Assembly: GCF_900129025.1 (NCBI RefSeq) | Contig: NZ_FQUM01000013.1 | Location: forward strand, 1 to 64,000 | Source: Mariniphaga anaerophila | Lineage (GTDB): Bacteria; Bacteroidota; Bacteroidia; Bacteroidales; Prolixibacteraceae | Reading direction: 5' to 3' | Length of the DNA stretch: 64,000 bases | In this document: positions 37,583-61,393 of the stretch, in pieces | Layout: every line of letters starts with the position of its first letter | Position numbering within the stretch: position 1 is the first letter of the stretch | Position numbers and translations under genes: made by a program | The notes under the pieces: model-generated | The model's database searches: none | The model's input: only the letters and a program-made list of their open reading frames with translations | What the model was told of the DNA's origin: nothing

Positions 37583-37673
37583 AACAATAAAAATTCTCCG
37601 AATAATTTAGAGAAACTTTGATAAATACATTATTCTTATCAAGTATTCAATACGGAGTTGACCGAATGCTTAC

Positions 37674-37681
37674 GATAACCA
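37674..37681. repeat. Right 8-bp target duplication of the inner IS66
   Basis: GATAACCA directly follows the GCTTAC terminus and is identical to 35084-35091. Confidence 0.95.
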
Positions 37682-37820
37682 TGCGGTTGTTCCAACAGAA
37701 AGGGACAAGTTCACATCAGAAGAAAAGGGACTTGAGTTTATTTTCCCCAACGGCACACGGTTGCAGGTCAAAGGGCATGTTGATCCGGCTTTTCTAAAGA
37801 CCATCGTTCATTTATATTGA
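37682..37820 (+). pseudogene. Outer IS66 tnpA, 3' half
   Basis: The continuation of the gene split at 35091. Joined, the codon interrupted at CA completes as CAT (His) and the frame reads AVVPTERDKF, then LEFIFPNGTRLQVKGHVDP and a stop after IVHLY. The FPNGTRLQV strand matches the C-terminal region of TnpA. It has no start of its own. Confidence 0.9.
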
Positions 37821-37829
37821 CTATAGCCT

Positions 37830-38180: not shown

Positions 38181-38249
38181 AACCAAAGGTGTATTTTTGG
38201 CTAAAACCCTTGATTTTAGTATCTTTGAGATATATTCAGAAGGGGATAG

Positions 38250-43857: not shown

Positions 43858-45840
43858 ATGAACAGCATGAAACGGATAGTGATAATAATCTGCGTAAATT
43901 TATTACCGTATATAGGTTGGGCTGATACAATAAAGCTGTTTTCGCCAGATAAGAAAACGAAAGTTGAGATTCATTGCAATAAAGAAATATATTATTCCAT
44001 CTACCATTTAGATAGAGAAATATTGGATAATTCAAAAATTGGCTTAGTCGGATTTAGAGAAAGTTTAAATGGTGATAGTCTAGATTTTTTAACCAGAAAG
44101 AATGATATAAATGAGCAAATAGACTCTCCCTTTTACAGGTTTGCATCATACAAGGTAAGTTATAATGAATTGCAATTAACATTCAAACAAAACTATTTAC
44201 TGCAATTTCGAGTTTATAACGGAGGAGGAGTTGCCTATAGGTTTGTATTAAACAGAAATAGAAATGCCATCGTTAAAAATGAAATTGCAGAATTCAATTT
44301 TGATAATGATTACAAGGTCTATGCTGCTCATACAACCGGAAAAAACGATCCTTTTGCTACTTCATTTCAAAATACCTATCAGGTTAGTGAAATCTCACGT
44401 ATGGATACAAGTTTAATTTTTTTGCCTGTAGTCGTCGATATTGAAGATGAGTGGAAAGTAACAATCACCGAATCGGATTTAGAGGATTACCCTGGAATGT
44501 TTCTAAAATTAACTGAAAGTAAAAAAGGATTTAATGGAGTTTATGCACCTTATCCCGCAAAAGTGGATTGCTACCCTTGGCGAAAGCAGGAATATGTAAC
44601 AAAGCGTGAGCCATATATCGCAAAAGTGAATAAAAAGCAGCGACTTCCATGGCGAATTATTACTATCTCAGAAAAAGATACAGAGATGCCTGTCAATAAT
44701 ATGGTTTATGCTTTGGCTTCTCCAAACCGAATAGGAGATTATAGTTGGGCAAAGCCGGGAAAATCAGCCTGGGAATGGTGGAATGATTGGGGAATTCACA
44801 GTGTGGATTTTATGGCTGGCATAAACATGGATACGTACAAGTATTATATTGATTTTGCTTCCAAATATGGTTTGGAATATGTCATTCTTGATGAAGGTTG
44901 GTATGACGGTAAAAAAGGTAATTTATTTCAGGTTATTCCTGAATTAGATCTGCAAGAATTAGTGAGTTATGCAAAAGACAGGAATATTGGAGTAATTCTT
45001 TGGGCTGTTTTTAATGTTCTGGATAGTCAGCTTGATGAAGCATGCAAGTATTATTCTGAAATGGGAATAAAAGGATTTAAAGTGGATTTCCTTGATCGTG
45101 ATGATCAGGAAGCTGTAAAAATGGTATATAGAATAGCTGAAACTACAGCCAAATACAAATTGATATTGGATTTGCACGGAATCTATAAACCAACGGGACT
45201 AAATAGAACCTACCCGCATATTATGAATTTTGAAGGAGTATTTGGTTTGGAAGAAATGAAATGGAGTACCCCAGAAGTTAATATGCCGGAATATAATGTG
45301 ACTTTTCCATTTATTCGACTTATGGCGGGACCTGTGGATTATACCCCAGGTGCTATGAGAAATGCTTCAAAGAAAGACTTTCAACCAATTTACAGTAATC
45401 CTTTAAGCCAAGGTACAAGATGTCATCAGTTGGCAACATATGTAGTGTTTGATTCTCCGTTAACAATGCTATGCGACGCACCAACATATTATGAAAAGGA
45501 ACAAGAATTTACAAACTTTTTGGCATCAATCCCTGTAATTCCAGACGAAACTAAGATCCTTCAGGGACAGCTTGGTGAGTTCATAGTTACAGCAAAGCGA
45601 TTTGATACGGATTGGTACATTGGGGGATTAAGCAACTGGAATGAGAGAGAGTTGAACTTAGACTTGTCTTTCTTAGAAAATGATGTAGAATATCAAGCTG
45701 TTATCTACAACGATGGGATTAATTCAAATAAGCAGGCTTCAGATTATGTTGTAGAAAGAAGAGAAGTAAATGCCAACACAAAATTAAAACTTCATTGTGC
45801 TTCTGGAGGTGGAGTTGTGATCAAGCTTTCTCAAAAGTAG
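43858..45840 (+). CDS. GH97 glycoside hydrolase, probably retaining alpha-galactosidase type
   Basis: A 660-residue secreted enzyme (signal peptide through GWADT; an internal Met at residue 4 is an alternative start). The N-terminal beta-supersandwich is followed by a TIM barrel beginning PGKSAWEWWNDWG and containing YVILDEGWYDG. The nucleophile candidate is Asp410 in GFKVDFLDRDDQ, as in the retaining branch of GH97 (the inverting branch uses glutamates elsewhere). LDLHGIYKPTGLNRTYPH and NFEGVFGLEEM are strong family markers. The closing beta-domain ends HCASGGGVVIKL. Known retaining members are alpha-galactosidases; beta-L-arabinopyranosidase activity is known in the family too and would suit this locus. 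It lies 39 bases after the GH146-like gene. Confidence 0.93.
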   Translation: MNSMKRIVIIICVNLLPYIGWADTIKLFSPDKKTKVEIHCNKEIYYSIYHLDREILDNSKIGLVGFRESLNGDSLDFLTRKNDINEQIDSPFYRFASYKVSYNELQLTFKQNYLLQFRVYNGGGVAYRFVLNRNRNAIVKNEIAEFNFDNDYKVYAAHTTGKNDPFATSFQNTYQVSEISRMDTSLIFLPVVVDIEDEWKVTITESDLEDYPGMFLKLTESKKGFNGVYAPYPAKVDCYPWRKQEYVTKREPYIAKVNKKQRLPWRIITISEKDTEMPVNNMVYALASPNRIGDYSWAKPGKSAWEWWNDWGIHSVDFMAGINMDTYKYYIDFASKYGLEYVILDEGWYDGKKGNLFQVIPELDLQELVSYAKDRNIGVILWAVFNVLDSQLDEACKYYSEMGIKGFKVDFLDRDDQEAVKMVYRIAETTAKYKLILDLHGIYKPTGLNRTYPHIMNFEGVFGLEEMKWSTPEVNMPEYNVTFPFIRLMAGPVDYTPGAMRNASKKDFQPIYSNPLSQGTRCHQLATYVVFDSPLTMLCDAPTYYEKEQEFTNFLASIPVIPDETKILQGQLGEFIVTAKRFDTDWYIGGLSNWNERELNLDLSFLENDVEYQAVIYNDGINSNKQASDYVVERREVNANTKLKLHCASGGGVVIKLSQK

Positions 45841-45966: not shown

Positions 45967-48900
45967 ATGATTAAGTTACTTTTATTCTTTTGTATATTTC
46001 TCTTCTCAATTAATTCATGGTCAAATTCTGATCGCATTAATTTCTTTCATTATACGAATGAAAATGGACTCCCATCATCGTACGCAAAAGATATCACGCA
46101 AGATTATTTAGGTTTTATATGGGTAGCAACCCGAAACACAATTTCGCGCTTTGACGGAAAGCACTTTAAAAACTTTACAGCCGTAGATTACCAAGGTAAT
46201 ATAAGTAAAATATGGGGCATGAGATTCGTTTACTCAAACGACACATCGTTAATTATTGAGACTACAAATAATGATTTCTATGCATTTAATTTTGAACTCG
46301 AACAGTTTGAACCTTATAACATTTTAAATGAATTACAACCAGGAATTAATGTTCAGGATTCAGATCAAGGATTGTGGATTACAAAAAACAGTTCTATTTC
46401 TCATTTTGATATTGTAGGTCAAAAATTTCTAATGTTTAAAGAGAGGATTGAATTTGCAGACATTCCCGAAGAAGTGGTTCTAATGCACGTTCGAGAAAAG
46501 AATAACCTCATAGTTGCTTTAACATCCACTCAACATATAATGGTTTTCGATACAGAGCGTAGCCTACAAAGGCAATTTGAGTTGCCAAAGGATATCGTAC
46601 AAGGAGATATTGGGATCTTATTTCTTGATAAAAACAATAATGCCTGGCTTGGCGAATATGGTAACGGGTTATACCGAATTAACCTTACCAATGGACAAAT
46701 AAGCCGGTTCTCTTCTGAAGTAAAGGGGAATAGATATATTTTGCATAATATGGTTCATGATATTTGTGAAGATGAGCTGGGGCGAACTTGGATAGGAACA
46801 GAAAATGGATTATGTATCTGGTCTCCTTATACAGAGTCATTCTCATACCATCAATATGATATTAACAATCCCCAAGGATTAAATACCAATCCCATTTATA
46901 ATATTTTTTGTGATAGGGAAGGGAATATGTGGTTAGGGACCTACTTTGGTGGAATAAATTTCTGGGGAAGTAATACAACCTTCTTTAAGTATTGGGAAGC
47001 AGGTCAAGCTGCTCATCATATTAGTGGGAATGCGGTTAGCTGTATTACAGAAGATAATAAGGGTAATGTTTGGATAGGGATGGAAGACGCAGGTATAAAT
47101 TGCATCGATCCTGAGAAAGAAATTATTACAAGAGTGATAGATGAGAGTGTTGGATTATCATACAATAATGTACACGATATTCTCTTCGATACAGAAAATC
47201 GAATGTGGATTGCAACATATAGTGGTGGAGTTAATATATTAGATATGTCAACGAACAGGTTTGATTATATTAACACGGTTAATAATCCAGTACTACCTGC
47301 AGATAATATTTATAGCCTGCAACAAATGGGCGATTCAATCTTTATTTCAACATCTGCTGGTGTTGCAGTTTACAATTTGAATTCTAAAAACATTTCTCTA
47401 TTTAATGATGAAGTTTTTGATAACATCCAAGTTGAATCAATGCATAAAGATAAGGACCGAATGTGGTTTTCATCAGCAGTTGGGATTTATTTTACTGACA
47501 GAGATGCCATTAATGTGAAAATGTTTGATAAGTTCCCGGATTTGAAGAACATAAATTTTGTAAAAGTTGATTCCAAAGGACGTATCTGGACGGGTGATTA
47601 CCGCGAAGGTTTGTGGGGGTACGATTATTCAAAGGATACAGTATATCATTATAATGAGAGAAATGGTTTTCCTTTTACATGGATTTTTAGTATGGAAGAA
47701 GGGATTGATGGTACTTTTTGGGTAAGTGGAGATAAGGGATTGGTGAAATTTAATCCGGAAATCAATAAGATAAATTGGTTTAACAAAGAGTCGGGCTTGC
47801 CTTTTGAGCAGTTTAATTACAGAGCTTCGTTTAGGGATAAAAGCGGCATGATATATTTTGGAGGTAACAATGGCATGGTCTCCTTTAATGAGAAGTGGGA
47901 ACAGGAAGAAAAGAAGGAAATGAATGTAGTTTTTAGAGGGATGCAATTATTTAATCAGGAACTTAAACCTGGTCAAACTTCAGCTTTAAAAATTTCATTA
48001 AATGAACATCCTGAAATCAACCTAAAGTATAAAGAGAATGTTTTCACAATTGAATATTCAGCTCTTAATTTCCAAAACAAAGGGAATTGTCATTATGCTT
48101 ATTATCTGGAAGGATTTGAGAATGATTGGAATCTTGTAGGTAATCGCGATTTTGCTACTTATACTAATTTGAATCCGGGCACTTATTATTTTCATGTTAA
48201 AGCATCAGTCGATAATAACCAATGGGATAATCAATTTAATACGGTGAAAGTTGTTATTGAGCCACCATTTTGGCTCTCATGTTGGGGTTTTGTTATTTAT
48301 TTTTTATTAATGGTGCTAGCTCTGAGCATCTTTATTGCAGTCTCTAGAAAAATCAGAAAGTCGAGGTTGCAAGTAGAGATTGAACGTCGCGAAAAGATGT
48401 ACCTAACTGACCTCAATAATTTTAAGCTCGAATTTTTCACCAACGTTTCGCACGAACTGAGAACACCCCTAACATTAATTATTGGTCCTTTGACTAGGAT
48501 AATTAATGAAGAGAAGCTTACTCCAGCTCTTAACAATAAGATGAAAGGCATTAAGAATAATGCATCTCGTTTATTATTCTTAATTAATCAACTACTTGAT
48601 TTCAGGAAAACTGAGATTGGTAAAGAAAAACTAACGGTAAGTCAGCAGGAGATAGGCAAATTGATAAAGCAGATAGAAGAATATTTTAGCAATGCGGCAA
48701 AAGATAAAGGAATTGAGTTAGAGTTCGTCTATGATAAGTTGAATTCGAAGGTTTGGATTGATAGCAAGAAAATTGAAACTATATTAGTAAATATTATTTC
48801 AAATGCTTTAAAATATACAAATGAAGGAGGAACAGTTTCAGTTTATTCAGAATTAGTCTCTGATAATGACGAGGATAGTGTGAATGCTTTTATGTGTACT

Positions 48901-49992
48901 GTTAAAGATAATGGGGTTGGTATTGAAATTTCTAAGCTGAATAAGATATTTGAGCGTTTTTATCGTGACGATTTGGTAAGTAGTGGCAGAAATGATGAAG
49001 GAGGTTCAGGAATAGGTCTAGCACTGGCAAATAATTTGGTGAAGCTGCATAAAGGTAGTATTAACGTAACTAGCGAGAAAGGTAAAGGTTCTGTATTTAC
49101 AATAAAGATTCCAGTTGCCAGAAAAGAATATAAGGATGATGAAATTATCCTTGCAGAAAAGCAGTATAATATTCAGACGTTAAGTAGGGATAAGGTAACA
49201 ACAATTTTATCCACAGATAAGGAATTACATAAGATTAGTAAAAAAAGCAATATCTTGGTAATTGATGACAATCGGGAATTGCTGGACTTTATTACTGAAA
49301 CTTTGGTGAATGATTATTCAGTAACCACAGCAGTTGATGGTGCGCAGGGGATTGAAAAAGTAGGAAATACTAACTTTGACATAATAATAAGTGATGTAAT
49401 GATGCCATATATCGATGGTTTTGAACTTACCAGAAAGCTAAAAAGTGACATACAGACTTCTCATATTCCAATCATATTATTGACTGCTAAAAGTGGGGAT
49501 GAAAGTAAATTTGAAGGTTTGCAAACTGGTGCGGATTATTACATCGAAAAGCCGTTTCTTCCACATATTCTTAAACAGCTTATTGAGAATGTCCTTAAAA
49601 CCAGGCAAAATCTTTTCAAACGTTTTAAATCTGACCTAACTATGTTGCCCAAAGATGTGGCAGTTGTTGATTCGGATATAGAACTGATCGAAAAGATTAC
49701 AAAACTGGTAGAGGATAATATTGATATTCCCAACCTCGATGTTCAGTTTATTATTGATGAAATTGGAATAAGTCGATCATTGCTACATTTAAAGTTAAAG
49801 AAATTGACAGATTGTTCGGCTACTGAATTTGTTCGTTCAATTCGACTTCGAGAGGCCGCCAGATTAATTGCTGAAAGAAAATGTAATATTTCGGAAGCTG
49901 CTTACCGAACTGGTTTTTCAACCCCGGCCTATTTCTCTCGTCGTTTTAAAGAATACTTTGGAAAGTCTCCAAAGGATTATTTTAATAATTAA
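45967..49992 (+). CDS. Hybrid two-component system sensor/regulator (HTCS)
   Basis: A 1341-residue one-polypeptide two-component system. A signal peptide or anchor (1-20) is followed by two seven-bladed propellers of the Reg_prop type (about 25-665, with repeats such as EDELGRTWIGTENGLCIW and DNKGNVWIGMEDAGI). A Y_Y_Y domain (about 690-760) and a transmembrane helix (about 770-792) follow. The HisKA domain has His829 in NVSHELRTPLT; the HATPase domain has DNGVGIEISKLNKIFERFYR and GSGIGLAL. A receiver domain holds Asp1143 in IISDVMMP. An AraC-type DNA-binding domain occupies about 1230-1341 (FIIDEIGISRSLLHLKLKKL, then AAYRTGFSTPAYFSRRFKEYFG). Such proteins sense oligosaccharides in the periplasm and activate the PUL; this one probably controls the second susCD operon and the two enzyme genes before it. 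Confidence 0.96.
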   Translation: MIKLLLFFCIFLFSINSWSNSDRINFFHYTNENGLPSSYAKDITQDYLGFIWVATRNTISRFDGKHFKNFTAVDYQGNISKIWGMRFVYSNDTSLIIETTNNDFYAFNFELEQFEPYNILNELQPGINVQDSDQGLWITKNSSISHFDIVGQKFLMFKERIEFADIPEEVVLMHVREKNNLIVALTSTQHIMVFDTERSLQRQFELPKDIVQGDIGILFLDKNNNAWLGEYGNGLYRINLTNGQISRFSSEVKGNRYILHNMVHDICEDELGRTWIGTENGLCIWSPYTESFSYHQYDINNPQGLNTNPIYNIFCDREGNMWLGTYFGGINFWGSNTTFFKYWEAGQAAHHISGNAVSCITEDNKGNVWIGMEDAGINCIDPEKEIITRVIDESVGLSYNNVHDILFDTENRMWIATYSGGVNILDMSTNRFDYINTVNNPVLPADNIYSLQQMGDSIFISTSAGVAVYNLNSKNISLFNDEVFDNIQVESMHKDKDRMWFSSAVGIYFTDRDAINVKMFDKFPDLKNINFVKVDSKGRIWTGDYREGLWGYDYSKDTVYHYNERNGFPFTWIFSMEEGIDGTFWVSGDKGLVKFNPEINKINWFNKESGLPFEQFNYRASFRDKSGMIYFGGNNGMVSFNEKWEQEEKKEMNVVFRGMQLFNQELKPGQTSALKISLNEHPEINLKYKENVFTIEYSALNFQNKGNCHYAYYLEGFENDWNLVGNRDFATYTNLNPGTYYFHVKASVDNNQWDNQFNTVKVVIEPPFWLSCWGFVIYFLLMVLALSIFIAVSRKIRKSRLQVEIERREKMYLTDLNNFKLEFFTNVSHELRTPLTLIIGPLTRIINEEKLTPALNNKMKGIKNNASRLLFLINQLLDFRKTEIGKEKLTVSQQEIGKLIKQIEEYFSNAAKDKGIELEFVYDKLNSKVWIDSKKIETILVNIISNALKYTNEGGTVSVYSELVSDNDEDSVNAFMCTVKDNGVGIEISKLNKIFERFYRDDLVSSGRNDEGGSGIGLALANNLVKLHKGSINVTSEKGKGSVFTIKIPVARKEYKDDEIILAEKQYNIQTLSRDKVTTILSTDKELHKISKKSNILVIDDNRELLDFITETLVNDYSVTTAVDGAQGIEKVGNTNFDIIISDVMMPYIDGFELTRKLKSDIQTSHIPIILLTAKSGDESKFEGLQTGADYYIEKPFLPHILKQLIENVLKTRQNLFKRFKSDLTMLPKDVAVVDSDIELIEKITKLVEDNIDIPNLDVQFIIDEIGISRSLLHLKLKKLTDCSATEFVRSIRLREAARLIAERKCNISEAAYRTGFSTPAYFSRRFKEYFGKSPKDYFNN

Positions 49993-50061: not shown

Positions 50062-51305
50062 AAGACCGTTGCACGGCATAATTTTAAAATAATTGATTTA
50101 TTACATTGATATACAGCAATATATGAGTATATTTATTTATGAATAAGAACACTCAACCTACTTTAGCAGACAGTATTTGCGATTTACGGAGTCGAAAGAT
50201 AAAATCCACCTTTTTTCATCAAATAAATGAATTACTTGACTGGGAATCGCTAACAGCTATCATCAACGCTCATTACACTAAGGGTACTAGTGCCACAGGA
50301 ACGCCTGCTTATGATGGTTTATTATTGTTTAAAGTTTGTTTACTTCAGACTTGGTATGGTCTGAGTGATTATGAAGTTGAGGATAGAATAAACGATAGTA
50401 TTTCTTTTTCATACTTCTGCGGAATGCATATTGATCAAGTTTCTCCAGACCATAGTACGATTAGTCGTTTCAGGACATTGATGACCAAAAAAAAGCCTAT
50501 GAAAAACTTTTCAAAGAAATCAATAGGCAATTAGAACAACACGAAATTATCGTAAAGACGGGGGCAATCATTGATGCGAGTGTTATTGACACACCACTTC
50601 GTCCAAAGGGTAAAAACAACTACAAAGTAACTGAAGATAGAGAGGATGAAAAAGAAGTTGAAGTCACAAAGGAATATTCTTCCAATGTAGATAAAGAGGC
50701 TAGTTGGTTAAAGAAACGGGGGAAATTCCATTTTGGTTATAAGAAACATCATGTTACCGATGAAGAAGGATTGGTGTTAGGAGTGGTAACAACAAAAGCA
50801 AGTGTTAATGAAATTGCAAATTTAGCGGAGGTTTTGGATGCCGCAGATTTACCCGAAGATATTCCATTGAAAGCAGATAAAGGTTACCAATCGGAGAAGA
50901 ATGCACAAATTCTAAAGTCAAGAAAACTTAAAAATCATATTTTGAAAAAGGCAAAAAAGAATAAGCCTTTAACCCAATGGGAGAAGCGGTTTAATAAACT
51001 AATTGGGAAAACTCGATTTAAAGTAGAACGAACTTTTGGAGGGATAAAGAGATGGTTTTCAGGTGGAGTTGCAAGATACAGGGGAATCGAGAAAATGCAC
51101 TCTCAAAATTTAATGGAGGCATTGTGCTACAATTTGTATCGATCTCCTGGGATAGTTGCGTCTAATTGCAAAAACTAAAGAAAAAGGAAGCTAGAAATAG
51201 GTGCGAAAACATAAAATCGCCACCAATTCTAACAATATTTAGATCAAAAATTTTGGGAGCCGTATAGAATAGAATAGTCGCTGATTGCACTTTTGCAACG
51301 GTCTT
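50062..51305 (+). mobile_element. IS5-family insertion sequence
   Basis: A 1244-bp element with 12-bp perfect inverted ends (AAGACCGTTGCA at 50062-50073 and TGCAACGGTCTT at 51294-51305) and flanking GATTT direct repeats. It encodes one transposase in two overlapping frames. It lies between the hybrid sensor gene and the second susC, so it interrupts the regulatory region of the second PUL. Confidence 0.9.
50139..51178 (+). CDS. IS5-family transposase in two frames joined at an A8 tract
   Basis: The first frame (50139-50534) carries the DUF772-type N-terminal domain (AYDGLLLFKVCLLQTWYGLSD, then SFSYFCGMHID and PDHSTISRFR). At the run of eight A residues (50487-50494) the -1 frame continues as KKKAYEKLFKEINRQLEQ without a stop to 51178. 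The second part holds the DDE core: IIDASVIDTP, FHFGYKKHHVTDE, LKADKGYQSEKN and KVERTFGGIKRWF. Joined length is about 346 residues, normal for the family. The AAAAAAAAG run could support programmed -1 frameshifting, as in some IS5 relatives, or it could be an inactivating homopolymer change; sequence alone does not decide. Confidence 0.85.
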
Positions 51306-51580: not shown

Positions 51581-54541
51581 ATGAAAAAACTTAAAACATT
51601 AAGAAGAGGTTTAAGTAAGGCTCTTAACAGCCTGTTTACAATCTCATTTTTATTAATTCTGTTATGTACTTCAACCATCGCCTTTTCTCAGGTAAACGTT
51701 GAAGGGACTATTTTAGATGAAACAGATACTCCCTTACCAGGTGTTTCTGTTTTTATTAAGGGAACCACAAATGGCACAGTGACCAGTACATCTGGGAACT
51801 TTAGTTTGAATGCAGACGAAAATGATGTTGTGATAATGTCATTTGTAGGTTATACAACAGAAGAAATTACGGTGACTCTAGGAATGCAAAAATTAGCTAT
51901 CTCAATGAAACCAGATTTTATTGGTCTGGATGAGGTTGTTGCAATTGGTTATGGAACGCAGAAAAAGGGAGATGTTACCAGTTCGATTGCGAGTGTAAAA
52001 GAAAAAGATTTTACACAAGGTGTAATGAGTGATGCTGGAGGATTAATAAAAGGCAAAGTTGCCGGTTTAACAATTAATAATTCATCGGGTGCACCAGGGT
52101 CTGGTTCCGAAATTATCCTACGAGGAACTTCTTCAATATTAGGGAGCTCATCACCTTTAGTATTAGTTAATGGTATTCCAGGCGATCTAAATGTTATTGC
52201 TCCTGACGATATCGCATCTTTTGATGTTTTAAAAGATGCTTCCGCTTCGGCTATTTATGGAACAAGAGGAGCTAATGGAGTTATATTAATTACCACCAAA
52301 AAAGCCAAAGGCGATGGCAAAGCAACAATTACCTACTCAGGGTATGCATCTGTTTCGCAGTTCCAGAAGAAAGCTGATTTCCTGGATGCTTGGGACTATA
52401 AAGTTCTAGGTGGAATTGGAGAAGATTTACCATACCCAGATAGGAGACATGATACCAATTGGTTAGACGAAATAACCCGTACACCGTTTACTCAAAATCA
52501 TAATATCGCACTACGAGGCGGAACTCAGAAGTTTCAGTATTCGGTAACAGCCAACTATTCTGAGGAAAATGGAATGTTTGAAAGTTCAACCAATGAAGAA
52601 CAAAAGTACACGGTTGACCTAAGCCAGAAAATGTTTGATGATAAGCTAACGGTTAATTTTAATTTGATTAAAGGGTTAACAAGTGGTGTTGGCTTTAATT
52701 CTTACATATACAGACAAGCACTGATACGAAATCCAACAGAACCAATTTACGATGAAAACGGAGACTATTATGACCCCAATATTTTCCAGTATTTAAATCC
52801 GGTTGGAATGTTAAAAGAGAAAACTGAAGGTGGAGAAGGCGAATGGACATGGGTAACCGGAGGATTAACCTTAAATCCTGTTAAGGGACTTTTTCTTAAA
52901 GGAACTGCTACAACAAAAAGATGGAGTTCTCAAAATGGATATTACGAAAATTCAACATACCCAATCGCCACGCATAATGGTTATGCTTCAAGAGGGGCCT
53001 CTTACTCAAAAACAAATTTGTTGGACTTAACCTCCACATATTCAGCAAATATTGAAAAGCATAGAATTTCTGGAGTAGTAGGTTATAACTACGAGGACAA
53101 TCTTTCGGAAGGATTTAATGCCAACAACGCTGGTTTTCCAACAGATGTTTATACTTATAATAATCTTGGAGAAGGAACCTTCCTGAAAGAAGGTAAGGCA
53201 GGTATGAGTAGTTATAAAAACAGCTCAAAACTAATTGCCTTTTTGGGACGTGTTAGTTATGGGTTTGATGACAGGTTTAATCTACTTGCCAGTTTACGTT
53301 ACGAAGGTTCTTCAAAATTTGGGGTAAATAACAAGTGGGGAGCTTTCCCATCTGTTTCCTTGGGATGGAACTTGCACAAGGAAAGTTTTATGCAAGATGC
53401 CTCTATGGTTAATAATTTAAAATTAAGACTTGGTTATGGTGTTACTGGTATTACACCAAATTCATCATACCAATCACTTACCTTGTATAATTATTCAGGT
53501 TATTTCAATGATAATGGACGCTGGGTTCCCGGCTTAACTCCTTCAAGTAATCCAAATCCCGATTTACGCTGGGAAAGAACAACGGAATACAATTTAGGTA
53601 TTGATTTCGGATTATGGGATGGAGTATTATCAGGTAGTATTGACGTGTATGACAGATTAACAGCTGATCTGCTTTATAATTATCAGGTTCCTACTCCTCC
53701 TTATTTGTTTGGAAGTCTGCTCACCAATGTTGGAGACATGTCCAATAAAGGAATTGAAGTGGCATTAAATTCAAACATTATAAACAAGACTAATTTTAAA
53801 TGGACAACAAGCCTGAATTTCTCTTATAATAAAAACGAATTAACCCGCATTTCTAATGAAAAGTTTGAAGTGAAAGATAATCGATTCTTCGCCGGATACA
53901 CTGGTGATCCAATTCAGAATTCAACTCATATTGTGGAAGAAGGTCAGCCCATAGGAAATATGTGGACCTGGAAAACCGTTGATATTGGCAGAAATGGAGA
54001 ATGGATTATTGAAACACCAGAAGGTGAACAAAAATACATTTCGGAAGCAACAGAAGATGATAAAATGGTTCTTGGTAATGGTGTTCCAAACTACACAATG
54101 GGGTGGGTAAATAACGTTCAGTATAAAAATTTTGATTTGAACTTTGTATTTACAGGAGCATTCGATTACCAGATAATCAACTTTCAGCGTATGTTTTATG
54201 AAAATCCTACGATTACGTACAATATGTTAAGTAGTGCTTTTGATAAGGTATATGGGAAAACACGTTTGGATTATACTCAAGAGTATCTAAGTTATTATAT
54301 CGAAGATGGCGACTATGTTAAATTGCAAAACGTAACATTGGGATATAACTTTAATGTTAGTTCGGTTGATTTTATTCAGTCGGCAAGAATCTATGTGGCA
54401 GGAAACAACTTGTTTACCATTACCAAATATAAGGGAATGGATCCTGAAGTAAACAGAACAGGTTTAACTCCTGGTACGGATAACAGAGATAAATATCCAA
54501 CAGTTAGGACTTTCACGTTTGGTTTAAATTTTACTTTCTAG
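51581..54541 (+). CDS. SusC-like TonB-dependent outer-membrane receptor (second PUL)
   Basis: A 986-residue protein with a long signal region (through AFSQ at about residue 36). A carboxypeptidase-regulatory-like domain (about 38-115: VEGTILDETDTPLPGVSVFI, then GTVTSTSGNFSL) and a plug follow (LDEVVAIGYGTQKKGDVTSSI, then PLVLVNGIPGDLNVIAPDDI). The barrel ends FTFGLNFTF with a terminal Phe. It is distinct in sequence from the SusC at 12305 and therefore probably imports a different fragment. Its SusD partner follows after 30 bases. Confidence 0.95.
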   Translation: MKKLKTLRRGLSKALNSLFTISFLLILLCTSTIAFSQVNVEGTILDETDTPLPGVSVFIKGTTNGTVTSTSGNFSLNADENDVVIMSFVGYTTEEITVTLGMQKLAISMKPDFIGLDEVVAIGYGTQKKGDVTSSIASVKEKDFTQGVMSDAGGLIKGKVAGLTINNSSGAPGSGSEIILRGTSSILGSSSPLVLVNGIPGDLNVIAPDDIASFDVLKDASASAIYGTRGANGVILITTKKAKGDGKATITYSGYASVSQFQKKADFLDAWDYKVLGGIGEDLPYPDRRHDTNWLDEITRTPFTQNHNIALRGGTQKFQYSVTANYSEENGMFESSTNEEQKYTVDLSQKMFDDKLTVNFNLIKGLTSGVGFNSYIYRQALIRNPTEPIYDENGDYYDPNIFQYLNPVGMLKEKTEGGEGEWTWVTGGLTLNPVKGLFLKGTATTKRWSSQNGYYENSTYPIATHNGYASRGASYSKTNLLDLTSTYSANIEKHRISGVVGYNYEDNLSEGFNANNAGFPTDVYTYNNLGEGTFLKEGKAGMSSYKNSSKLIAFLGRVSYGFDDRFNLLASLRYEGSSKFGVNNKWGAFPSVSLGWNLHKESFMQDASMVNNLKLRLGYGVTGITPNSSYQSLTLYNYSGYFNDNGRWVPGLTPSSNPNPDLRWERTTEYNLGIDFGLWDGVLSGSIDVYDRLTADLLYNYQVPTPPYLFGSLLTNVGDMSNKGIEVALNSNIINKTNFKWTTSLNFSYNKNELTRISNEKFEVKDNRFFAGYTGDPIQNSTHIVEEGQPIGNMWTWKTVDIGRNGEWIIETPEGEQKYISEATEDDKMVLGNGVPNYTMGWVNNVQYKNFDLNFVFTGAFDYQIINFQRMFYENPTITYNMLSSAFDKVYGKTRLDYTQEYLSYYIEDGDYVKLQNVTLGYNFNVSSVDFIQSARIYVAGNNLFTITKYKGMDPEVNRTGLTPGTDNRDKYPTVRTFTFGLNFTF

Positions 54542-54571: not shown

Positions 54572-56167
54572 ATGATTTTAAAACATTATAAAACACTGCT
54601 TTGCATCTTACTAATAACCATCTTCAGCTCTTGTACTGATTTATCTGAAGATGTTTACGATAGAATTATTGCTGAAGAAACAGAACTAACAGCTAAGGAT
54701 TTAAATAGTATAATTGCTCCGGTATATATTTCATTAAGAAATCAGTATTTTGGCTGGCATGGTTTTTTTGATTCACAGGAGGAATGTGCCGACCTTATTG
54801 TAACCCCTGCTCGACCAGCTGGTTGGGTTGATGGGGGCGTTTATCAAAGAGAACATTTACATACATGGGATTTTAGTCAATCTCATCCTGCAAGAATTTG
54901 GTCTTCGTGTTTTTCTGGCATTAGTAATGTAAATAGGGCATTGTTTCAGTTAGAAGGGATTGAGCTTGATAATAAGGAGAGTTATATCGCAGAGCTTCGT
55001 GGTATGCGTGCACTTTTTTATTATATATTATGTGACAATATTGGTAATGTGCCTATTGAAACCAAATATGAAGTTCCAGAGGGATATTTACCAACTCAAA
55101 ATACAAGGCAAGAAGTGTTTGACTTTGTCATTTCAGAAATAAACGAAATTCTTGATGTTTTGCCTCAAGGAGTGGACCAATCAACTTATGGTAGATTTAC
55201 CAAGTGGACAGGGCTTATGCTTTTAGGTAAAATGTATTTGAATGCCGAGGTATATACAGGTACTGCGCAATGGGACAAATGCCTCAATGTGGTTGACGAA
55301 ATAATTGAATCCGATTTGTTTAGTCTTGAAAGCAGCTACAAAAACAACTTCAAAACCAAAAACGACGGTTCTGCAGAACAGATATTTTCCATTCCATTTG
55401 ATGAAATTTATGCGGGTTGGTTCCATTATCACTTAAAAACATTACATCCGGTTAGTCAGGATACATATGGGTTGGAAGCCCAACCATGGGGAGGAAGCTG
55501 TGCAATCCCTCAGTTTATAGATACTTATGACCCGGATGATTCCAGACTTAAAGATACTTGGATTGCAGGACCTCAATTAACAATTTCGGGCGAACCTTTA
55601 ATGCTTTCATCGGGTGTGCAGTTAGATTATACTAAATATGTTAACAGTGTATTTGAAACAGAAGAGAATGAGGGTTACCGTTTCGGTAAATACGAAATTG
55701 CCATTGGAGCTCTTGGACAGTTAAGTAACGATGTACCGTTTTTTAGGTATGCCGATGCCTTAATGATGAAGGCAGAATGTCTGTTACGTACAGGTGATGC
55801 ACATGGCGCTGCAACTATAGTTACTCAGGTACGCCAACGTAATTTTGCTTCAAATCCATCCAAAGCGATTGTAAATGGGGCTCAGCTTACCGCTGGGAGT
55901 TCATACAACTATGGAGTTAACGAAGGAGGTGTAATGATTACTGAGCAAGGAGGAGACGATATTGAATTTGGTGGCTTTTACGATGAGTTGGCATGGGAAT
56001 TCGTTGGGGAACACCATCGTCGTCAAGATATGATTCGTTTTGGAACATTTACTACCAAACAGTGGTTCTCACACACTGAAAGCGATGATTTTAGGACATT
56101 GTTCCCTGTTCCAAAAACACAAATGGATAAAAACTTAAACCTGGTTCAGAACCCAGGGTATGAATAG
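54572..56167 (+). CDS. SusD/RagB-family glycan-binding lipoprotein (second PUL)
   Basis: A 531-residue lipoprotein (lipobox IFSSC, Cys21). SusD-type features include the segment IAELRGMRALFYYILCDNIGNVPI, FFRYADALMMKAECLLRTGD, and the closing ELAWEFVGEHHRRQDMIRFG with FPVPKTQMDKNLNLVQNPGY. It should bind the incoming oligosaccharide on the SusC lid. A strong terminator lies just downstream. Confidence 0.95.
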   Translation: MILKHYKTLLCILLITIFSSCTDLSEDVYDRIIAEETELTAKDLNSIIAPVYISLRNQYFGWHGFFDSQEECADLIVTPARPAGWVDGGVYQREHLHTWDFSQSHPARIWSSCFSGISNVNRALFQLEGIELDNKESYIAELRGMRALFYYILCDNIGNVPIETKYEVPEGYLPTQNTRQEVFDFVISEINEILDVLPQGVDQSTYGRFTKWTGLMLLGKMYLNAEVYTGTAQWDKCLNVVDEIIESDLFSLESSYKNNFKTKNDGSAEQIFSIPFDEIYAGWFHYHLKTLHPVSQDTYGLEAQPWGGSCAIPQFIDTYDPDDSRLKDTWIAGPQLTISGEPLMLSSGVQLDYTKYVNSVFETEENEGYRFGKYEIAIGALGQLSNDVPFFRYADALMMKAECLLRTGDAHGAATIVTQVRQRNFASNPSKAIVNGAQLTAGSSYNYGVNEGGVMITEQGGDDIEFGGFYDELAWEFVGEHHRRQDMIRFGTFTTKQWFSHTESDDFRTLFPVPKTQMDKNLNLVQNPGYE

Positions 56168-56331: not shown

Positions 56332-59300
56332 ATGTTAATATTAAATCTAATTATTGTAGTTAAGAATAAGTGTGAAGTTGTTTCTGGTCATTTCTATGCA
56401 TTTATCCTTGCTTTCTTTCTTCTATTTTGTGGAATAAGTTCTACTTTATCAGGACAACAAAATATTGCAGTGAAAGCTGATGGAGTTTATACTTCACATG
56501 TTTCACCATGGGAAACGTTGGATGCAGTTAATGATGGATTCGAACCATCAGGTTCTGGTGATAAAACTCATGGAGCTTATGGAAATTGGACTGGAAATAT
56601 AGGCGTATGGAATTGGGTTGAATACAATTGGGAGGACTATTATGTAATCTCTCAATCTGAGGTTTATTGGTGGACCGATGGTGGCGGAATTCAAATTCCA
56701 GATTCATCTTTTATTGAATACTGGGATGTTGCAGATAATACTTGGCTTGAAGTACCCAACCACAACGGATATAAACATCTTGAAAATGAATATAGTGTTG
56801 TTGCTTTCGATGAAATATATACGAATAAAATTAGACTTCATTGTAAAAGTAATACAGAGGCTACAGGTATACTAGAGTGGAAAGTTGTAGGAGATATGGC
56901 GGAAAAATTGCCCGGTCATGTTGATTTAGACATTAGTAATGAGTTAGCTCTTTCAACCACATCAACTGTAACTCTCAGCCTAAAGGATAATGTCGGGAAT
57001 GCAGTTACAGGATATAACTTTGTATATGATGTTATCATTACCAATAGCTTGAAAAATGTTAATGAAAGTTTTCAGGTAAATGGAGTTAATTATTCTGAAT
57101 CAGCAGGCAAAGTGAGATTGTTGGAAACAGATGATAATGGTAAAATATCATTTGATATTGTACTGCCTGCCTCTATCGATCCAGGTGATGGAATAAGCAT
57201 TGAGCTCTTTTATAATAATGGATTGGTTAAAGCTGGATCTGAATTCTCATTTTACCAGCCTGCTATGGATAGTCCTATGATAGTTGCTGACAATACAAAC
57301 AATTCAGTTGATTTTGATATTGAATTAACATTTGTGGATAACCCGGATTGGAGAAAACAAATATATGAGGTAACAATTAATAACCAGACTTTAGATACAA
57401 CAGCTTATGACCTTACTAGTGGAAAAATATCGTTAAAACCATCGAGCCTAAATCCCGCTTTAACTGGAATGGGGCTAAAAACGGTAAAGATATTTGCTTA
57501 TGGGTATGGAACCGTTTCTATTGAGCAACAAATTAATGCAGGTGAACTTTCAACAGAAAGAACCAAAGTGGGAACCTACTTGGTACTCACTAAGAATCAA
57601 TTTACACAAATATTTTGCGAGGCAAATGACCAATATAACAATCCAATTCCGGGGCTAAAATTTTTATATGATATTGAAATTACGAATAGTAATTCAACAA
57701 GTCAGGAACAATACGTTATCAATGGGAGAACTTCTTCGGTCAACTCTTCCGCAAATCAAATGGGGGAAAGCTCTGATGAAGGGTATGCTGAGATGGATAT
57801 TCAAATGCCCAGTGAAATAGATATTAATGATGGAATAGTCATAAAGGTAAAAACTGAAGAAGGCCAATTAGTTGGACAGGTTAATTATGAAGCTAGTAGT
57901 TCTGAAAAAAGCGTGTATGTGCAACGTGCAGTAAGAAATCATCCCGATTTTAGCTGGGAAAGAACTGCCCAATCTGAAAACTTTATTTTGTATTGGGGGT
58001 CTAAAATAGAGGGCGATCCGATTAGCGAGAGTAACGGTAATCTGAAGTTTGATCCTGTTGTTATATTAAATGCATTGGAAACTGTTATGTCCTATTGGAC
58101 AGATAGCATCAATTTTATTGATAACCCAGATGAAGGAAATATGGCTAAGTACAAATTCGAAGCTGTACTAAATGAAACTTGGTCCAGTGGATTTGGAGGT
58201 TGGGCTTTTGGTGGTTCTGCAGATGACGTGATAGGTAGTATGTGGATTCATCCGCAAGCAGCTTCAGGCGGTGTTGGTGCTCTTGCTCATGAATTTGGAC
58301 ATATGTGTCAGGCAATGATACTAATTCAAAACCCGGGATATGGGCTTAAAACACCTTGGGCTGGATTCTTTTGGGAATCTCATACCTGCTTTATGGATTG
58401 GTTTTATAAAGACTATGGTTTTGATATTGGAATGTCAAGATACATCATGACATCTTCCATGCAATATAGTACAACACGAAGACATTATCAGAATGTATTA
58501 TTCCTTCAGTATTTATATGATAAATATGGACTGCAGACTATAAATGACATATGGAAAAATGCAAATCCAGAAATGAGTCACCCTCTTACATCATTGCGCG
58601 ATTCTGTTTTAGGATATACTCAATCAGACTTAAACGATGATTTTGGACATCATGCCATGCGCAATGTCACATGGGATTATTCGAACAAAGATCTATTTGA
58701 AAAATATGTAAACAAAGTTGACCAATCAACTATAAACCGTAGATATACGATTCTTGAAAGAATCAAGAATATGGACGATTGGTATATTGTACCAAGGGAA
58801 ATGGCTCCTGCCGATTATGGTTTTAATATTATACCATTTTATCCTGATAGCTCAGTTTCTCAGATAAGCATCGATTTTTACGGATATGAAAATGAACCTG
58901 CTGGTGGTGCCGGATGGAGATATGGGATTGTTGAAGTAGATAATAGTGGAACTCCAACATATGGTGAATTGCAGAAATCTAAAGAGGGAACTTTAACGTA
59001 TTCAGTAGCAAATACTGATAATGAATTCTATTTTGTTGTATCTGGAGCACCAGCGGAACATCATAACTATTTTTGGGAACCTGGGTTTCCAAAGATTTAT
59101 AGATATCCTTATAAAGTACGATTTAATGGGGCTAAGCCTGCAGGGCATAAGGTCGGTTACAATCGTAGAATTGAAGAGAACTCTGGGACCACCCATGTTA
59201 ATGGAGGAGGTTGGGTAGCATCAACAGCAAATGTTGAATCTTCTGTTTATGTTGGCCCAAATGCACAAGTACTGGGAAATGCTTTGGTACGTGGTAATGT

Positions 59301-60267
59301 GAGGATTGAAGATTATGCCATTGTTAAAGATGATGCCCAGGTTAGTGGTAATGCTATTATAAAGGATTGGGCTCTTGTGGGGAAAAATGCAGTTGTTAAA
59401 GATAATGTAATTGTTGAAAAACGCTCAAGGGTATATACAAACTGTGAAATAAGCGAAAACGCTCTGGTAACTGGAAGTGCCATCGTGTATTATGGAAGTA
59501 AAGTAAAAGGAGATGCTGTTGCGAAAGATTTAGCATTTCTTTTTAATCTCACTCTTTCGGGGACAGCTGTGCTTGGTGGAGATGGAGAGGAGTTCCAAAC
59601 CGTCTCAGAGGGCATTTATCTGCAGGTACAAAATGCTGCAGGTGCGAACAGAAATGGAGTCGATGGACTAGATTTTCATCTGTCTAATGTTGATATAAAT
59701 CCAACTATTTCCGATTACTTCTGTCCTAACGGAGATTACCCGACTGGGTCGTTTAATTTGAAAGCCGAGAATATTCAGGATAAAAGTGTGGCCCTAAAGT
59801 GGGATACGCCCGAAAGTAAATATGGAATTAAAAAGTATTATGTTCTTCAAGAAGATAACGTTAAAGAAATAACCACATCAAATGCGGTTAGCTTTTCTAA
59901 TCTAATCTCAAATTACAATTATACTTTCAGGGTAGTTGGAATTGATAGTCTAGGAAATTATACACCATATAGTAATTCTGTAACCTTTCAAACGCTTGTT
60001 ACTTCAATATCTTCTGAAATTCAAGAGCACGATAATTTTAAAATAAGCAATTTATATCCGCAACAACGCATTTGTGTTATTGCTCCAGATATTAATAGAA
60101 AGAACATTTTAGAGATATATACAATCTCTGGTCAGTTGGTTTATAAAAAATCATTTGTTGCTGAAACATCTGTTAATCATTCGGCAATTGGCGGAAGTGG
60201 AATATATCTAGTTAAAGTAAATAATGGAGAAATAAGAGAAAACAGTAAAGTTTATTTGAATAACTAA
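56332..60267 (+). CDS. Svx/AvrXca-like secreted metallopeptidase with binding module, beta-helix, FN3 and T9SS tail
   Basis: A 1311-residue multidomain protein. A signal (about 1-42) is followed by a discoidin-like module (about 45-190, beginning AVKADGVYTSHVSPWETLDA), two homologous Ig-like domains (about 194-320 and 404-525) separated by a DUF1533-like segment, and a gluzincin-type peptidase domain (about 540-830). The zinc motif is HEFGH (His653, Glu654, His657), with Glu682 in FFWESHTCFMDW as probable third ligand. This core matches the Svx/AvrXca family (DUF6055). About residues 965-1085 are left-handed beta-helix hexapeptide-type repeats (GNALVRGNVRIEDYAIV). An FN3 domain (about 1140-1225) and a T9SS-type sorting tail complete it. 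Svx proteins from plant pathogens are reported to attack plant glycoproteins; here it may cleave the protein part of an arabinogalactan-protein or extensin. Confidence 0.8.
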   Translation: MLILNLIIVVKNKCEVVSGHFYAFILAFFLLFCGISSTLSGQQNIAVKADGVYTSHVSPWETLDAVNDGFEPSGSGDKTHGAYGNWTGNIGVWNWVEYNWEDYYVISQSEVYWWTDGGGIQIPDSSFIEYWDVADNTWLEVPNHNGYKHLENEYSVVAFDEIYTNKIRLHCKSNTEATGILEWKVVGDMAEKLPGHVDLDISNELALSTTSTVTLSLKDNVGNAVTGYNFVYDVIITNSLKNVNESFQVNGVNYSESAGKVRLLETDDNGKISFDIVLPASIDPGDGISIELFYNNGLVKAGSEFSFYQPAMDSPMIVADNTNNSVDFDIELTFVDNPDWRKQIYEVTINNQTLDTTAYDLTSGKISLKPSSLNPALTGMGLKTVKIFAYGYGTVSIEQQINAGELSTERTKVGTYLVLTKNQFTQIFCEANDQYNNPIPGLKFLYDIEITNSNSTSQEQYVINGRTSSVNSSANQMGESSDEGYAEMDIQMPSEIDINDGIVIKVKTEEGQLVGQVNYEASSSEKSVYVQRAVRNHPDFSWERTAQSENFILYWGSKIEGDPISESNGNLKFDPVVILNALETVMSYWTDSINFIDNPDEGNMAKYKFEAVLNETWSSGFGGWAFGGSADDVIGSMWIHPQAASGGVGALAHEFGHMCQAMILIQNPGYGLKTPWAGFFWESHTCFMDWFYKDYGFDIGMSRYIMTSSMQYSTTRRHYQNVLFLQYLYDKYGLQTINDIWKNANPEMSHPLTSLRDSVLGYTQSDLNDDFGHHAMRNVTWDYSNKDLFEKYVNKVDQSTINRRYTILERIKNMDDWYIVPREMAPADYGFNIIPFYPDSSVSQISIDFYGYENEPAGGAGWRYGIVEVDNSGTPTYGELQKSKEGTLTYSVANTDNEFYFVVSGAPAEHHNYFWEPGFPKIYRYPYKVRFNGAKPAGHKVGYNRRIEENSGTTHVNGGGWVASTANVESSVYVGPNAQVLGNALVRGNVRIEDYAIVKDDAQVSGNAIIKDWALVGKNAVVKDNVIVEKRSRVYTNCEISENALVTGSAIVYYGSKVKGDAVAKDLAFLFNLTLSGTAVLGGDGEEFQTVSEGIYLQVQNAAGANRNGVDGLDFHLSNVDINPTISDYFCPNGDYPTGSFNLKAENIQDKSVALKWDTPESKYGIKKYYVLQEDNVKEITTSNAVSFSNLISNYNYTFRVVGIDSLGNYTPYSNSVTFQTLVTSISSEIQEHDNFKISNLYPQQRICVIAPDINRKNILEIYTISGQLVYKKSFVAETSVNHSAIGGSGIYLVKVNNGEIRENSKVYLNN

Positions 60268-60289: not shown

Positions 60290-61393
60290 ATGAAAAATCT
60301 TAGAACTTATTTGTTAGCATTAGTAGTAATATTGGGCATTGCTATTGTATCCTGTACCGAAGAGAAGGTAGAGTATATTGATTTAATGCCCCCGGAGATA
60401 ACAACTACGTCTCCTGGAGCAAATGCCAGCATATTGCTGGGTGAACCATTAGAGATTAAAAGTCAGTTTGTTGATAATGATTTCCTTTCATCTTATGGAA
60501 TAAGTGTATCAGGAACAGAGGGGCAGTCGTGGTCTTACTCGACTACAGAGAACTTTGAATCTGACAAATATGATGTAACTGTTGAATTAACCATTGAAAC
60601 TCCTGGTGAAGACGATGTTGCAAGTGCTGGAGTTTATGAGTTGATTGTTTGGGCTGTTGATCTGCAGGGGAATGCTGACTCCTCAATTACCAGTTTTACG
60701 CTTGCAGAATTACCACCTCCTGCCTTTACCGATGACTTTAGCACAGCTATTGATTTCACTACCGATGACTTGAGCAATACCATATGGGATGGTTTTTTAA
60801 TTAATTCAGGAGTGGGTGTTCCACAAAACGCTGTATTGATGATGGCTAATACTACCGAGAATGAGGGTGCTCTTACAGTTGTGACCAATGAAACTGGTTG
60901 GGAAAATGGTCACGACGATGGCTTTGTTTTGTATAAAAATGTTCCTGGGGGAACAGATTTTGAAGTTTCAGTGCAAATGGTAGGTGGAGACTTCGCTTCG
61001 CTAGGTGGTGGAATCGTAAATTATCTAACAGCTGGAGTAATAATTAAGCCTACAGCATCCACTGATTATTGGGTCGGAGCTAATGCTTTCGATCGTCCAG
61101 AATGGGCTGTTGTTGTTGGAATGAGAGATATTTATGATGGAAATCAAGAGGATACTTGGTCAGGGGAGAATAAAACTGCACTTAGTGAAACACCATGGCT
61201 TAAACTGGTGAAAATTGGCAAAGTTGTTACGGCATATATTTCTGTTGATGGTGTTATTTGGTTAGAAATGGGCACAACTGAGCATGATGAGTATGCTGTA
61301 GATGATTTACAGGTTGGTCTTTCTCATGCAACTTTTACCGGAGAAACAGGTGCAGCAGTATATGACAACTTCAATTTAACTTATTTGAATTAA
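60290..61393 (+). CDS. DUF4625-like lipoprotein with concanavalin-like C-terminal domain
   Basis: A 367-residue lipoprotein (lipobox IAIVSC, Cys22). Residues about 30-140 resemble DUF4625 or a PKD/Ig-like domain (PPEITTTSPGANASILLGE, then FVDNDFLSSYGISVSG). Residues about 150-367 form a DUF1349/LamG-like beta-sandwich (TIWDGFLINSG, then GFVLYKNVPGGTDFEVSVQM and AAVYDNFNLTY). In this position it is likely an outer-surface glycan-binding protein that serves the second SusC/D pair or tethers substrate for the peptidase. It starts 22 bases after the peptidase gene, so the two are probably cotranscribed. Confidence 0.7.
   Translation: MKNLRTYLLALVVILGIAIVSCTEEKVEYIDLMPPEITTTSPGANASILLGEPLEIKSQFVDNDFLSSYGISVSGTEGQSWSYSTTENFESDKYDVTVELTIETPGEDDVASAGVYELIVWAVDLQGNADSSITSFTLAELPPPAFTDDFSTAIDFTTDDLSNTIWDGFLINSGVGVPQNAVLMMANTTENEGALTVVTNETGWENGHDDGFVLYKNVPGGTDFEVSVQMVGGDFASLGGGIVNYLTAGVIIKPTASTDYWVGANAFDRPEWAVVVGMRDIYDGNQEDTWSGENKTALSETPWLKLVKIGKVVTAYISVDGVIWLEMGTTEHDEYAVDDLQVGLSHATFTGETGAAVYDNFNLTYLN

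What the first reader, a model, noticed from the sequence alone, without database searches (positions are those of the whole stretch)
56332..60267. Giant T9SS-exported Svx-like gluzincin inside a glycan utilisation locus
Seen: HEFGH with a Glu 25 residues later, flanked by a discoidin-like module, Ig repeats, a hexapeptide beta-helix, FN3 and a sorting tail, and encoded just after a susCD pair and two genes before a GH127. Known: Svx/AvrXca proteins are secreted peptidases of plant pathogens, reported to act on plant glycoproteins. Inference: the locus breaks down a glycoprotein (arabinogalactan-protein or extensin type), with the peptidase opening the backbone and GH127/GH146 trimming its arabinose. 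Coupling of a glycoprotein peptidase to SusC/D uptake of the freed glycans seems little described.
Basis: partly seen in the sequence, partly recalled or inferred. Interest (0 to 1): 0.85.

Follow-up and report, generated by a model that had tools for sequence, protein, structure and literature searches.

The report
Svx-like glycoprotein peptidase in uptake locus
A bacterium carries a relative of a plant-pathogen enzyme that cuts sugar-coated cell-wall proteins, placed in a sugar-uptake gene cluster together with other protein- and arabinose-cutting enzymes, which suggests that the cluster feeds on such wall glycoproteins.

Summary
Window 56332-60267 encodes a 1311-aa protein with a full DUF6055 domain, HEFGH (653-657) plus Glu682, a left-handed beta-helix (LbH), FN3 and a T9SS tail, just after susC/susD. 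It matches NCBIfam Svx/AvrXca over both domains (E 1.7e-72) but far below the equivalog cut-off (245 against 625 bits): Svx-like, not a certified Svx. Its modelled peptidase domain aligns best with gluzincins (lugdulysin, Z 14). A peptidase-domain tree puts it on the LbH/Svx side (100/100). The gene run continues past the window with three GH127 genes in all, two further putative HExxH metallopeptidases and a DPP-IV-like S9 peptidase; four of its proteins share one discoidin-like module. DUF6055 loci lie near GH127 more often than chance (12 of 31, 2.3 expected) or other SusD loci (6 of 8 against 5 of 144). A Svx gene over the cut-off, on a Novosphingobium plasmid, has a related S9 gene one gene away. 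Best reading: a utilisation locus for arabinosylated, hydroxyproline-rich glycoproteins of extensin type. Substrate and activity are inferred. PUL-linked glycoprotein peptidases are known for mucin; this would be a plant/algal counterpart.

The parts
56332..60267 (+). P0001, Svx-like DUF6055 metallopeptidase, 1311 aa
56464..56901 (+). N-terminal discoidin-like module (residues 45-190), shared by four proteins of the run
57283..57537 (+). Ig-like Shr-like_HID domain (residues 318-402)
57913..59142 (+). DUF6055 peptidase domain (residues 528-937)
   Evidence: models; fold
58288..58302 (+). HEFGH zinc motif (residues 653-657)
58375..58377 (+). Glu682, presumed third zinc ligand
   Evidence: invariant; on the helix after the HExxH helix
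59185..59592 (+). Left-handed beta-helix, the 'acyltransferase-like' domain of Svx (about residues 952-1087)
59743..59988 (+). FN3 (residues 1138-1219)
60085..60252 (+). T9SS type A sorting tail (residues 1252-1307)
   Evidence: TIGR04183 29.4 bits, cut-off 23
51581..54541 (+). SusC-like TonB-dependent transporter
54572..56167 (+). SusD-like protein
60290..61393 (+). DUF4625 protein with a sub-cut-off DUF1349 match; possible surface glycan-binding protein (inference)
   Evidence: a relative lies next to the orthologue (before it) in L078, L079, L080
61460..64000 (+). GH127a (runs to 64171 on the contig) with the shared module near its C-terminus
43858..45840 (+). GH97 retaining alpha-galactosidase (associated by position only; transposase pieces lie between it and susC)
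   Evidence: (NF053844 863 bits, cut-off 800)
40669..43818 (+). LamG-Big_4-GH146-like protein
45967..49992 (+). Hybrid two-component regulator
50139..51178 (+). Transposase pieces between regulator and susC (first ORF has Pfam DUF772; the second was judged by eye)

Best explanation
The protein is a secreted, T9SS-exported zinc endopeptidase of the DUF6055 superfamily, of the two-domain (peptidase plus beta-helix) Svx type. It works inside a utilisation locus for arabinosylated, hydroxyproline-rich glycoproteins (extensin type, of plants or green algae). Proposed order of events, all inferred: the LbH and the discoidin-like module dock the glycoprotein; the peptidase cuts the rod-like backbone; SusC/SusD import glycopeptides or arabino-oligosaccharides; GH127 enzymes remove beta-L-arabinofuranose; a GH97 alpha-galactosidase may remove Ser-linked alpha-galactose; the DPP-IV-like S9 peptidase and two further putative metallopeptidases finish the peptide. 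Shown by computation: family, domain order, fold class of the models, gene order, and association with GH127, with an S9 subfamily and with a SusC/D clade. Not shown: any activity, substrate, regulation or localisation.
For: Two-domain match to the Svx/AvrXca model, 579-1062 against 65-566 of 601. The peptidase-domain tree of 48 chosen rows separates 20 LbH from 28 LbH-less proteins by one branch, 100/100, with P0001 on the LbH side. Second-look alignment of the modelled peptidase ranks lugdulysin (M30) first, Z 14.0 over 276 residues, then aminopeptidases, thermolysin-type enzymes and a collagenase. Svx cleaves carrot extensin and needs its LbH for it (PMC13164431, results and part of the discussion read). 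The contig run after it: DUF4625, GH127, phosphoesterase, GH127, HEGIH protein, S9, HEFAH protein, CRP-type regulator, GH127. Association: 12 of 31 DUF6055 loci have GH127 within 20 kb, 2.3 expected; 6 of 8 against 5 of 144 SusD controls, Fisher p 8e-7. Of six named orthologues (51-56% in the best segment), five have GH127/GH146 relatives nearby and two have S9 immediately downstream. The S9 is 58% identical to that in L083; a related S9 (30%) lies two genes before a Novosphingobium protein that passes the Svx cut-off (835 against 625 bits). GH97 is of the retaining alpha-galactosidase type. GH43 proteins recur in LbH-less DUF6055 loci (6 of the 30 loci L031-L060 at 1e-147 or better).
Against: No activity data. 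GH127a and b are closest to 6ex6; a paper passage ties the Bacteroides GH127 BT3674 to larch arabinogalactan (that 6ex6 is BT3674 is recalled). Of the 20 other SusD matches below E 1e-100, only 5 lie beside a full-length DUF6055 and 1 beside a partial one; 3 more are on short contigs and 11 have none in the DNA fetched. Next to LbH-type orthologues the SusC/D clade was seen only in the window, L080 and the short contig L092; several contigs end nearby. Of five loci from unnamed families f124 and f143 with LbH proteins, one has a GH146-like neighbour and one another SusC/D-like pair. 19 of 31 DUF6055 loci lack GH127 within 20 kb. GH97 occurs in only 5 of the 30 loci L031-L060, 2 of them over the alpha-galactosidase cut-off. 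Isolate names of several orthologues suggest springs, soda-lake sediment or vents, not plants (reading of the names is recalled). GH97 and regulator are separated from susC by transposase pieces.
Confidence: 0.6

Rival explanations
1. The locus targets arabinogalactan-proteins: the peptidase opens AGP backbones and GH127 trims beta-arabinofuranose ends, with the galactan removed by enzymes elsewhere.
For: GH127a and b are closest to 6ex6, and a paper passage links BT3674 with larch arabinogalactan. GH2, GH115 and alpha-L-arabinofuranosidase genes lie upstream in the window.
Against: The Pfam scans of the genes from susC to the last GH127 list no galactanase family; three GH127 fit short beta-arabinosides better (inference); the characterised relative Svx cuts extensin.
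Confidence: 0.2
2. The peptidase is a general protease that happens to sit in an arabinan or mixed plant-polysaccharide PUL and releases any wall protein.
For: Svx also digests azocasein. Many DUF6055 loci lack GH127 or SusC/D in the DNA fetched.
Against: Shared module on the peptidase and GH127, linkage to GH127 in both DUF6055 lineages, a dedicated S9 partner, and two extra putative peptidases in the run.
Confidence: 0.15
3. The domain is no longer a protease but a binding or structural protein.
For: No direct assay; model confidence is moderate (mean pLDDT 76.9 and 77.5).
Against: HExxH and the Glu are invariant in 13 distant members and a WE-x-H segment in 11; the relative Svx is an active peptidase that loses activity when its motif glutamates are changed.
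Confidence: 0.05

Closest known systems
Svx peptidases of Pectobacterium and Dickeya (NCBIfam NF040510)
   Same: DUF6055-type gluzincin plus LbH; HEXXH...E; two-domain profile match
   Different: 245 bits against a cut-off of 625; 29% identity over 509 columns to a Novosphingobium protein that passes the cut-off; extra module, Ig, FN3 and T9SS tail; in a SusC/D locus, whereas Svx is a T2SS-exported virulence factor
Mucin PUL BT4240-50 of Bacteroides thetaiotaomicron with M60-like peptidase BT4244 (PMC11992087)
   Same: By its abstract and section headings: surface glycoprotein peptidase, SusD-like protein, glycosidases and carbohydrate-binding modules in one PUL; the closest in how it would work
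   Different: M60-like peptidase acting on mucin; P0001 has no Pfam M60 match at E 0.01; here beta-L-arabinofuranosidases
HypBA1/HypBA2/HypAA systems of Bifidobacterium and Xanthomonas euvesicatoria (PMC6085000)
   Same: beta-L-arabinofuranosidases acting on extensin-type Hyp-arabinosides
   Different: In the passages seen no dedicated peptidase; proteases are only expected to act afterwards. No GH121 annotation turned up in this run, but I did not check that the libraries hold a GH121 model
LbH-less DUF6055 proteins of Bacteroidota PULs
   Same: Same superfamily; in several loci the same SusC/D clade and GH127, sometimes S9 and GH97
   Different: Separate lineage without LbH, several with DUF4859 neighbours; the word DUF6055 occurs in one paper of the library only, on a fungus

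Membership tests
Pfam DUF6055 (PF19527) | Score over curated cut-off (27 bits) | tested here: met
   352.3 bits, 9-416 of 417
Svx/AvrXca (NF040510, equivalog) | Score over curated cut-off (625 bits) | tested here: not met
   244.9 bits; a Novosphingobium protein reaches 834.9
Svx/AvrXca | Peptidase followed by left-handed beta-helix | tested here: met
   profile match over both, model and fold
Svx/AvrXca | HEXXHX(8,28)E | tested here: met
   HEFGH-X24-E; Svx has X22
Svx/AvrXca | Cleaves extensin, LbH required | not testable with these tools
   needs protein; known for Svx
Gluzincin zinc metallopeptidases | Metallopeptidase fold with HExxH on one helix and Glu on a following helix | tested here: met
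   helices 126-144 and 155-169; all 50 listed rows are peptidases known as metalloenzymes (by title, some recalled), best Z 14.0, rmsd 4.4, 276 aligned. Foldseek's own list was weak and mixed. No coordinates were available to measure the site
M60-like glycopeptidase | Pfam M60 match | tested here: not met
   not among families at E<=0.01; fold relation not excluded
Polysaccharide utilisation locus | Adjacent SusC and SusD with glycoside hydrolases | tested here: met
T9SS cargo | C-terminal sorting domain and T9SS in genome | tested here: met
   TIGR04183 29.4 over 23; SprA 2747.6 bits; Pfam's tail model below its cut-off; other T9SS parts and signal peptide not tested
MEROPS family | MEROPS assignment | not tested
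   no MEROPS library; one paper passage places a fungal DUF6055 protein in M106

The most novel reading that the evidence does not exclude
A dedicated glycoprotein-degradation unit (Svx-type endopeptidase, its own DPP-IV-like peptidase, beta-L-arabinofuranosidases) is shared across phyla. In Bacteroidota it is a SusC/D nutrient locus for extensin-type glycoproteins, joined to the same transporter clade by two separate DUF6055 lineages; the plant-pathogen virulence factor Svx is one branch of this feeding machinery.
Probability: 0.35. Interest if true: 0.75.

Novelty: new variant of a known kind. Interest (0 to 1): 0.6.

Why it matters
Extensin-type glycoproteins are tough wall proteins, and I found little in print on how bacteria outside plant disease use their protein part. 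If right, the finding gives a defined enzyme set for it, recasts a virulence factor as part of a wider feeding strategy, and offers the plant or algal counterpart of mucin-glycoprotein PULs.

Tried and rejected
Direct comparison with Pectobacterium Svx: its sequence was not fetched; the NCBIfam model and a Novosphingobium relative on a plasmid stood in.

Foldseek with the two-domain model returned many beta-helix enzymes and mixed others, so the peptidase domain was modelled alone. Foldseek with that model gave weak, mixed hits; the gluzincin result rests on the second-look alignment, which can only re-rank Foldseek's own candidates.

PepM2 (P0002) against DUF6055: profile comparison gave probability 41%, pair E 0.00027, aligning HEGIH with HEFGH: suggestive, not settled. 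PepM3 (P0005): no family of its own; a homologous part of L037 has a sub-cut-off ATLF match.

A viral-contig scan with the core: the 79 loci kept (of 277 relatives) match query residues 386-581 only, that is the beta-helix region, so it added nothing on the peptidase.

By titles and abstract starts no listed paper ties Svx or DUF6055 to SusC/D or to Bacteroidota; most full texts were not opened. The library lacks preprints and most subscription journals.

Dropped before counts: 32 of the 52 genomes with any DUF6055 match (weak or partial) were left out of the association test; DUF6055 sites on very short contigs count as misses; the 144 SusD controls come from the 150 rows shown of 164 matches, less 6 within 20 kb of DUF6055. 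The tree uses 48 rows that I chose: near-duplicates, split genes and short fragments among the fetched loci (such as L046, L049, L053, L054, L055, L057, L059, L060, L065, L066, L068, L069, L076, L085, L091) were left out.
Full report
WHAT IS THERE. The ORF at 56332-60267 (+) encodes 1311 residues. Pfam finds DUF6055 at 528-937 (E 4.9e-105), an Ig-like domain, hexapeptide repeats and FN3; NCBIfam finds a T9SS type A tail over its cut-off, Pfam's tail model stays below its own. HEFGH lies at 653-657 and Glu682 follows 25 residues after the second His. In 13 divergent family members HExxH and this Glu are invariant. The genome has SprA, so T9SS export is plausible.

FAMILY. NCBIfam's Svx/AvrXca model matches 579-1062 over 65-566 of 601 positions, that is the peptidase and the beta-helix, at E 1.7e-72, but at 244.9 bits against a cut-off of 625. 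Of the relatives scanned only a Novosphingobium plasmid protein passes (834.9 bits); it is 29% identical to P0001 over 509 columns. Other LbH proteins reach 124 to 275 bits, four LbH-less DUF6055 proteins 49 to 70. A tree of the peptidase domain of 48 chosen proteins puts the 20 LbH proteins on one side of a 100/100 branch and the 28 without on the other. Rows were cut 300 residues after HExxH, so a few may hold the first LbH residues; columns filled in under half of the rows were dropped, which removes columns present in the 20 LbH rows alone. The tool warns that the Novosphingobium row is a long branch. So P0001 is Svx-like, not a filed Svx.

FOLD. AlphaFold2 of the two-domain core gave mean pLDDT 76.9, pTM 0.75. 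The beta-helix aligns with LpxA, LpxD and GlmU at Z 17-19. The peptidase alone gave 77.5 and 0.79; second-look alignment ranks M30 lugdulysin first (Z 14.0, rmsd 4.4, 276 residues), then aminopeptidases of the M1 type, thermolysin-type enzymes and a collagenase, while Foldseek's own list was weak and mixed. HExxH sits on helix 126-144 and the Glu on helix 155-169 of the model. Zinc geometry was not measured.

NEIGHBOURHOOD. SusC 51581-54541 and SusD 54572-56167 precede it; a DUF4625 protein and GH127 follow. The contig is 80,902 bases long and the run goes on past the window, coordinates continuing: GH127a to 64171; P0004 64213-67074 with phosphoesterase domains and a T9SS tail; GH127b 67365-69764; P0002 69819-72443 with HEGIH and a T9SS tail; S9 72620-74869 (DPPIV_N plus Peptidase_S9); P0005 74891-75706 with HEFAH; a CRP-type regulator 75720-76445; GH127c 76559-78955. 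P0001, GH127a, P0004 and P0002 share one module (40-49% identity to that of P0001), which aligns at 25-26% with the F5/8-type-C-like tails of GH127b and c. GH127a and b are nearest to GH127 structures, the upstream 40669-43818 protein to 5opj and other structures that I take for GH146 (family of 5opj recalled). GH97 43858-45840 is a retaining alpha-galactosidase by NCBIfam (863 bits, cut-off 800) and by PDB match, but transposase pieces lie between it and susC.

CONSERVATION. In 393 genomes of the order, 52 had any DUF6055 match and 24 one over the cut-off. I followed 20 genomes with strong matches: 12 of their 31 loci (the window's included) have GH127 within 20 kb, 2.3 expected from GH127 density. 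In five of them, 6 of 8 DUF6055 loci but 5 of 144 listed SusD genes elsewhere have GH127 that near (Fisher p 8e-7). The control matters because glycosidases cluster in PULs. Six named orthologues, 50-56% identical over the core, keep the beta-helix; five have GH127/GH146 relatives close by; L080 has SusC, SusD, DUF4625, the orthologue and GH127 with the module, though with DUF4625 before instead of after the peptidase; L081 and L083 have S9 directly downstream. Of the 20 LbH proteins of the tree, 9 of the 19 examined have a GH127/GH146 relative in the DNA fetched; some contigs are short, and the Novosphingobium one was not searched for it. S9 recurs in LbH-less loci L031, L037 and L056 and, 30% identical, before the Novosphingobium Svx with a DUF5695 gene between; the window genome's best other S9 gene scores half as much (156 against 330 bits; different programs, so a rough comparison). 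GH43 proteins recur in 6 of the 30 loci L031-L060, GH97 in 5, of which 2 pass the alpha-galactosidase cut-off.

AGAINST. The SusD clade also occurs without DUF6055: of 20 further matches below 1e-100, 5 lie beside full-length and 1 beside partial DUF6055, 3 sit on contigs too short to tell, and 11 have none in the DNA fetched; 6 of those 11 still have a GH127/GH146 relative, one of them weak. Of five loci with LbH proteins from unnamed families f124 and f143, one has a GH146-like neighbour and one another SusC/D-like pair. 19 of the 31 DUF6055 loci lack GH127 within 20 kb. No activity is known.

MECHANISM. Svx of Pectobacterium atrosepticum cleaves carrot extensin, not mucin or concanavalin A, and loses this when the beta-helix is deleted while azocasein is still cut (PMC13164431, results and part of the discussion read); changing either motif glutamate lowers its activity about threefold (PMC9266454, part of results read). 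Extensin carries alpha-galactosyl serine and short arabinofuranosides on hydroxyproline (PMC6085000 passages). A Svx-like peptidase, several GH127, an alpha-galactosidase and a DPP-IV-like peptidase are the tools such a substrate asks for. This fit is an inference; confidence 0.6.

COMPARISON. What it works like: mucin PUL BT4240-50, with M60-like peptidase, SusD-like protein and glycosidases (abstract and section list seen). What it belongs to: DUF6055 (met); Svx equivalog (not met). The 2022 Svx survey names only genera that it files under Gamma-, Alpha- and Deltaproteobacteria in the passage read. Latescibacteria were proposed to use HRGPs by GH127 and peptidases held to be mostly non-specific (PMC4454575, passages). 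In nine searches no listed title or abstract start joins Svx or DUF6055 with SusC/D.

Noticed in passing
L037:10974-13694: GH97 retaining alpha-galactosidase fused to a PepM3-like domain with a sub-cut-off ATLF match, the gene after a DUF6055 peptidase.
   Followed up: partly
L093:5396-7447 and L094:6773-8836: A HELGH protein lies between a GH146-like gene and a SusD about 50% identical to the window's; the L093 copy has no Pfam match: the same transporter clade with a different putative metallopeptidase.
   Followed up: partly
L081:9421-12228, L083:5594-8362, L191:5054-7813: DUF5695 proteins of unknown function close to Svx-type peptidases and S9 genes in Bacteroidota MAGs and Novosphingobium.
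   Followed up: no
L031, L032, L033, L034, L045, L046, L055, L057; also L078, L080: CotH-kinase-type genes recur near DUF6055 peptidases: one cluster of eight loci, of which the L031 member was scanned, and two larger proteins.
   Followed up: no
C37:64213-67074 (L061:10214-13075): Phosphoesterase protein carrying the same discoidin-like module and a T9SS tail, in the middle of the run.
   Followed up: partly
L112-L190: Viral contigs encode the NGGG-type beta-helix region without a peptidase match.
   Followed up: no
window 12305-34143: Second SusC/D locus with alpha-L-arabinofuranosidase, GH2 and GH115 genes; two IS66 transposases at 35945-39887 lie between it and the finding.
   Followed up: no
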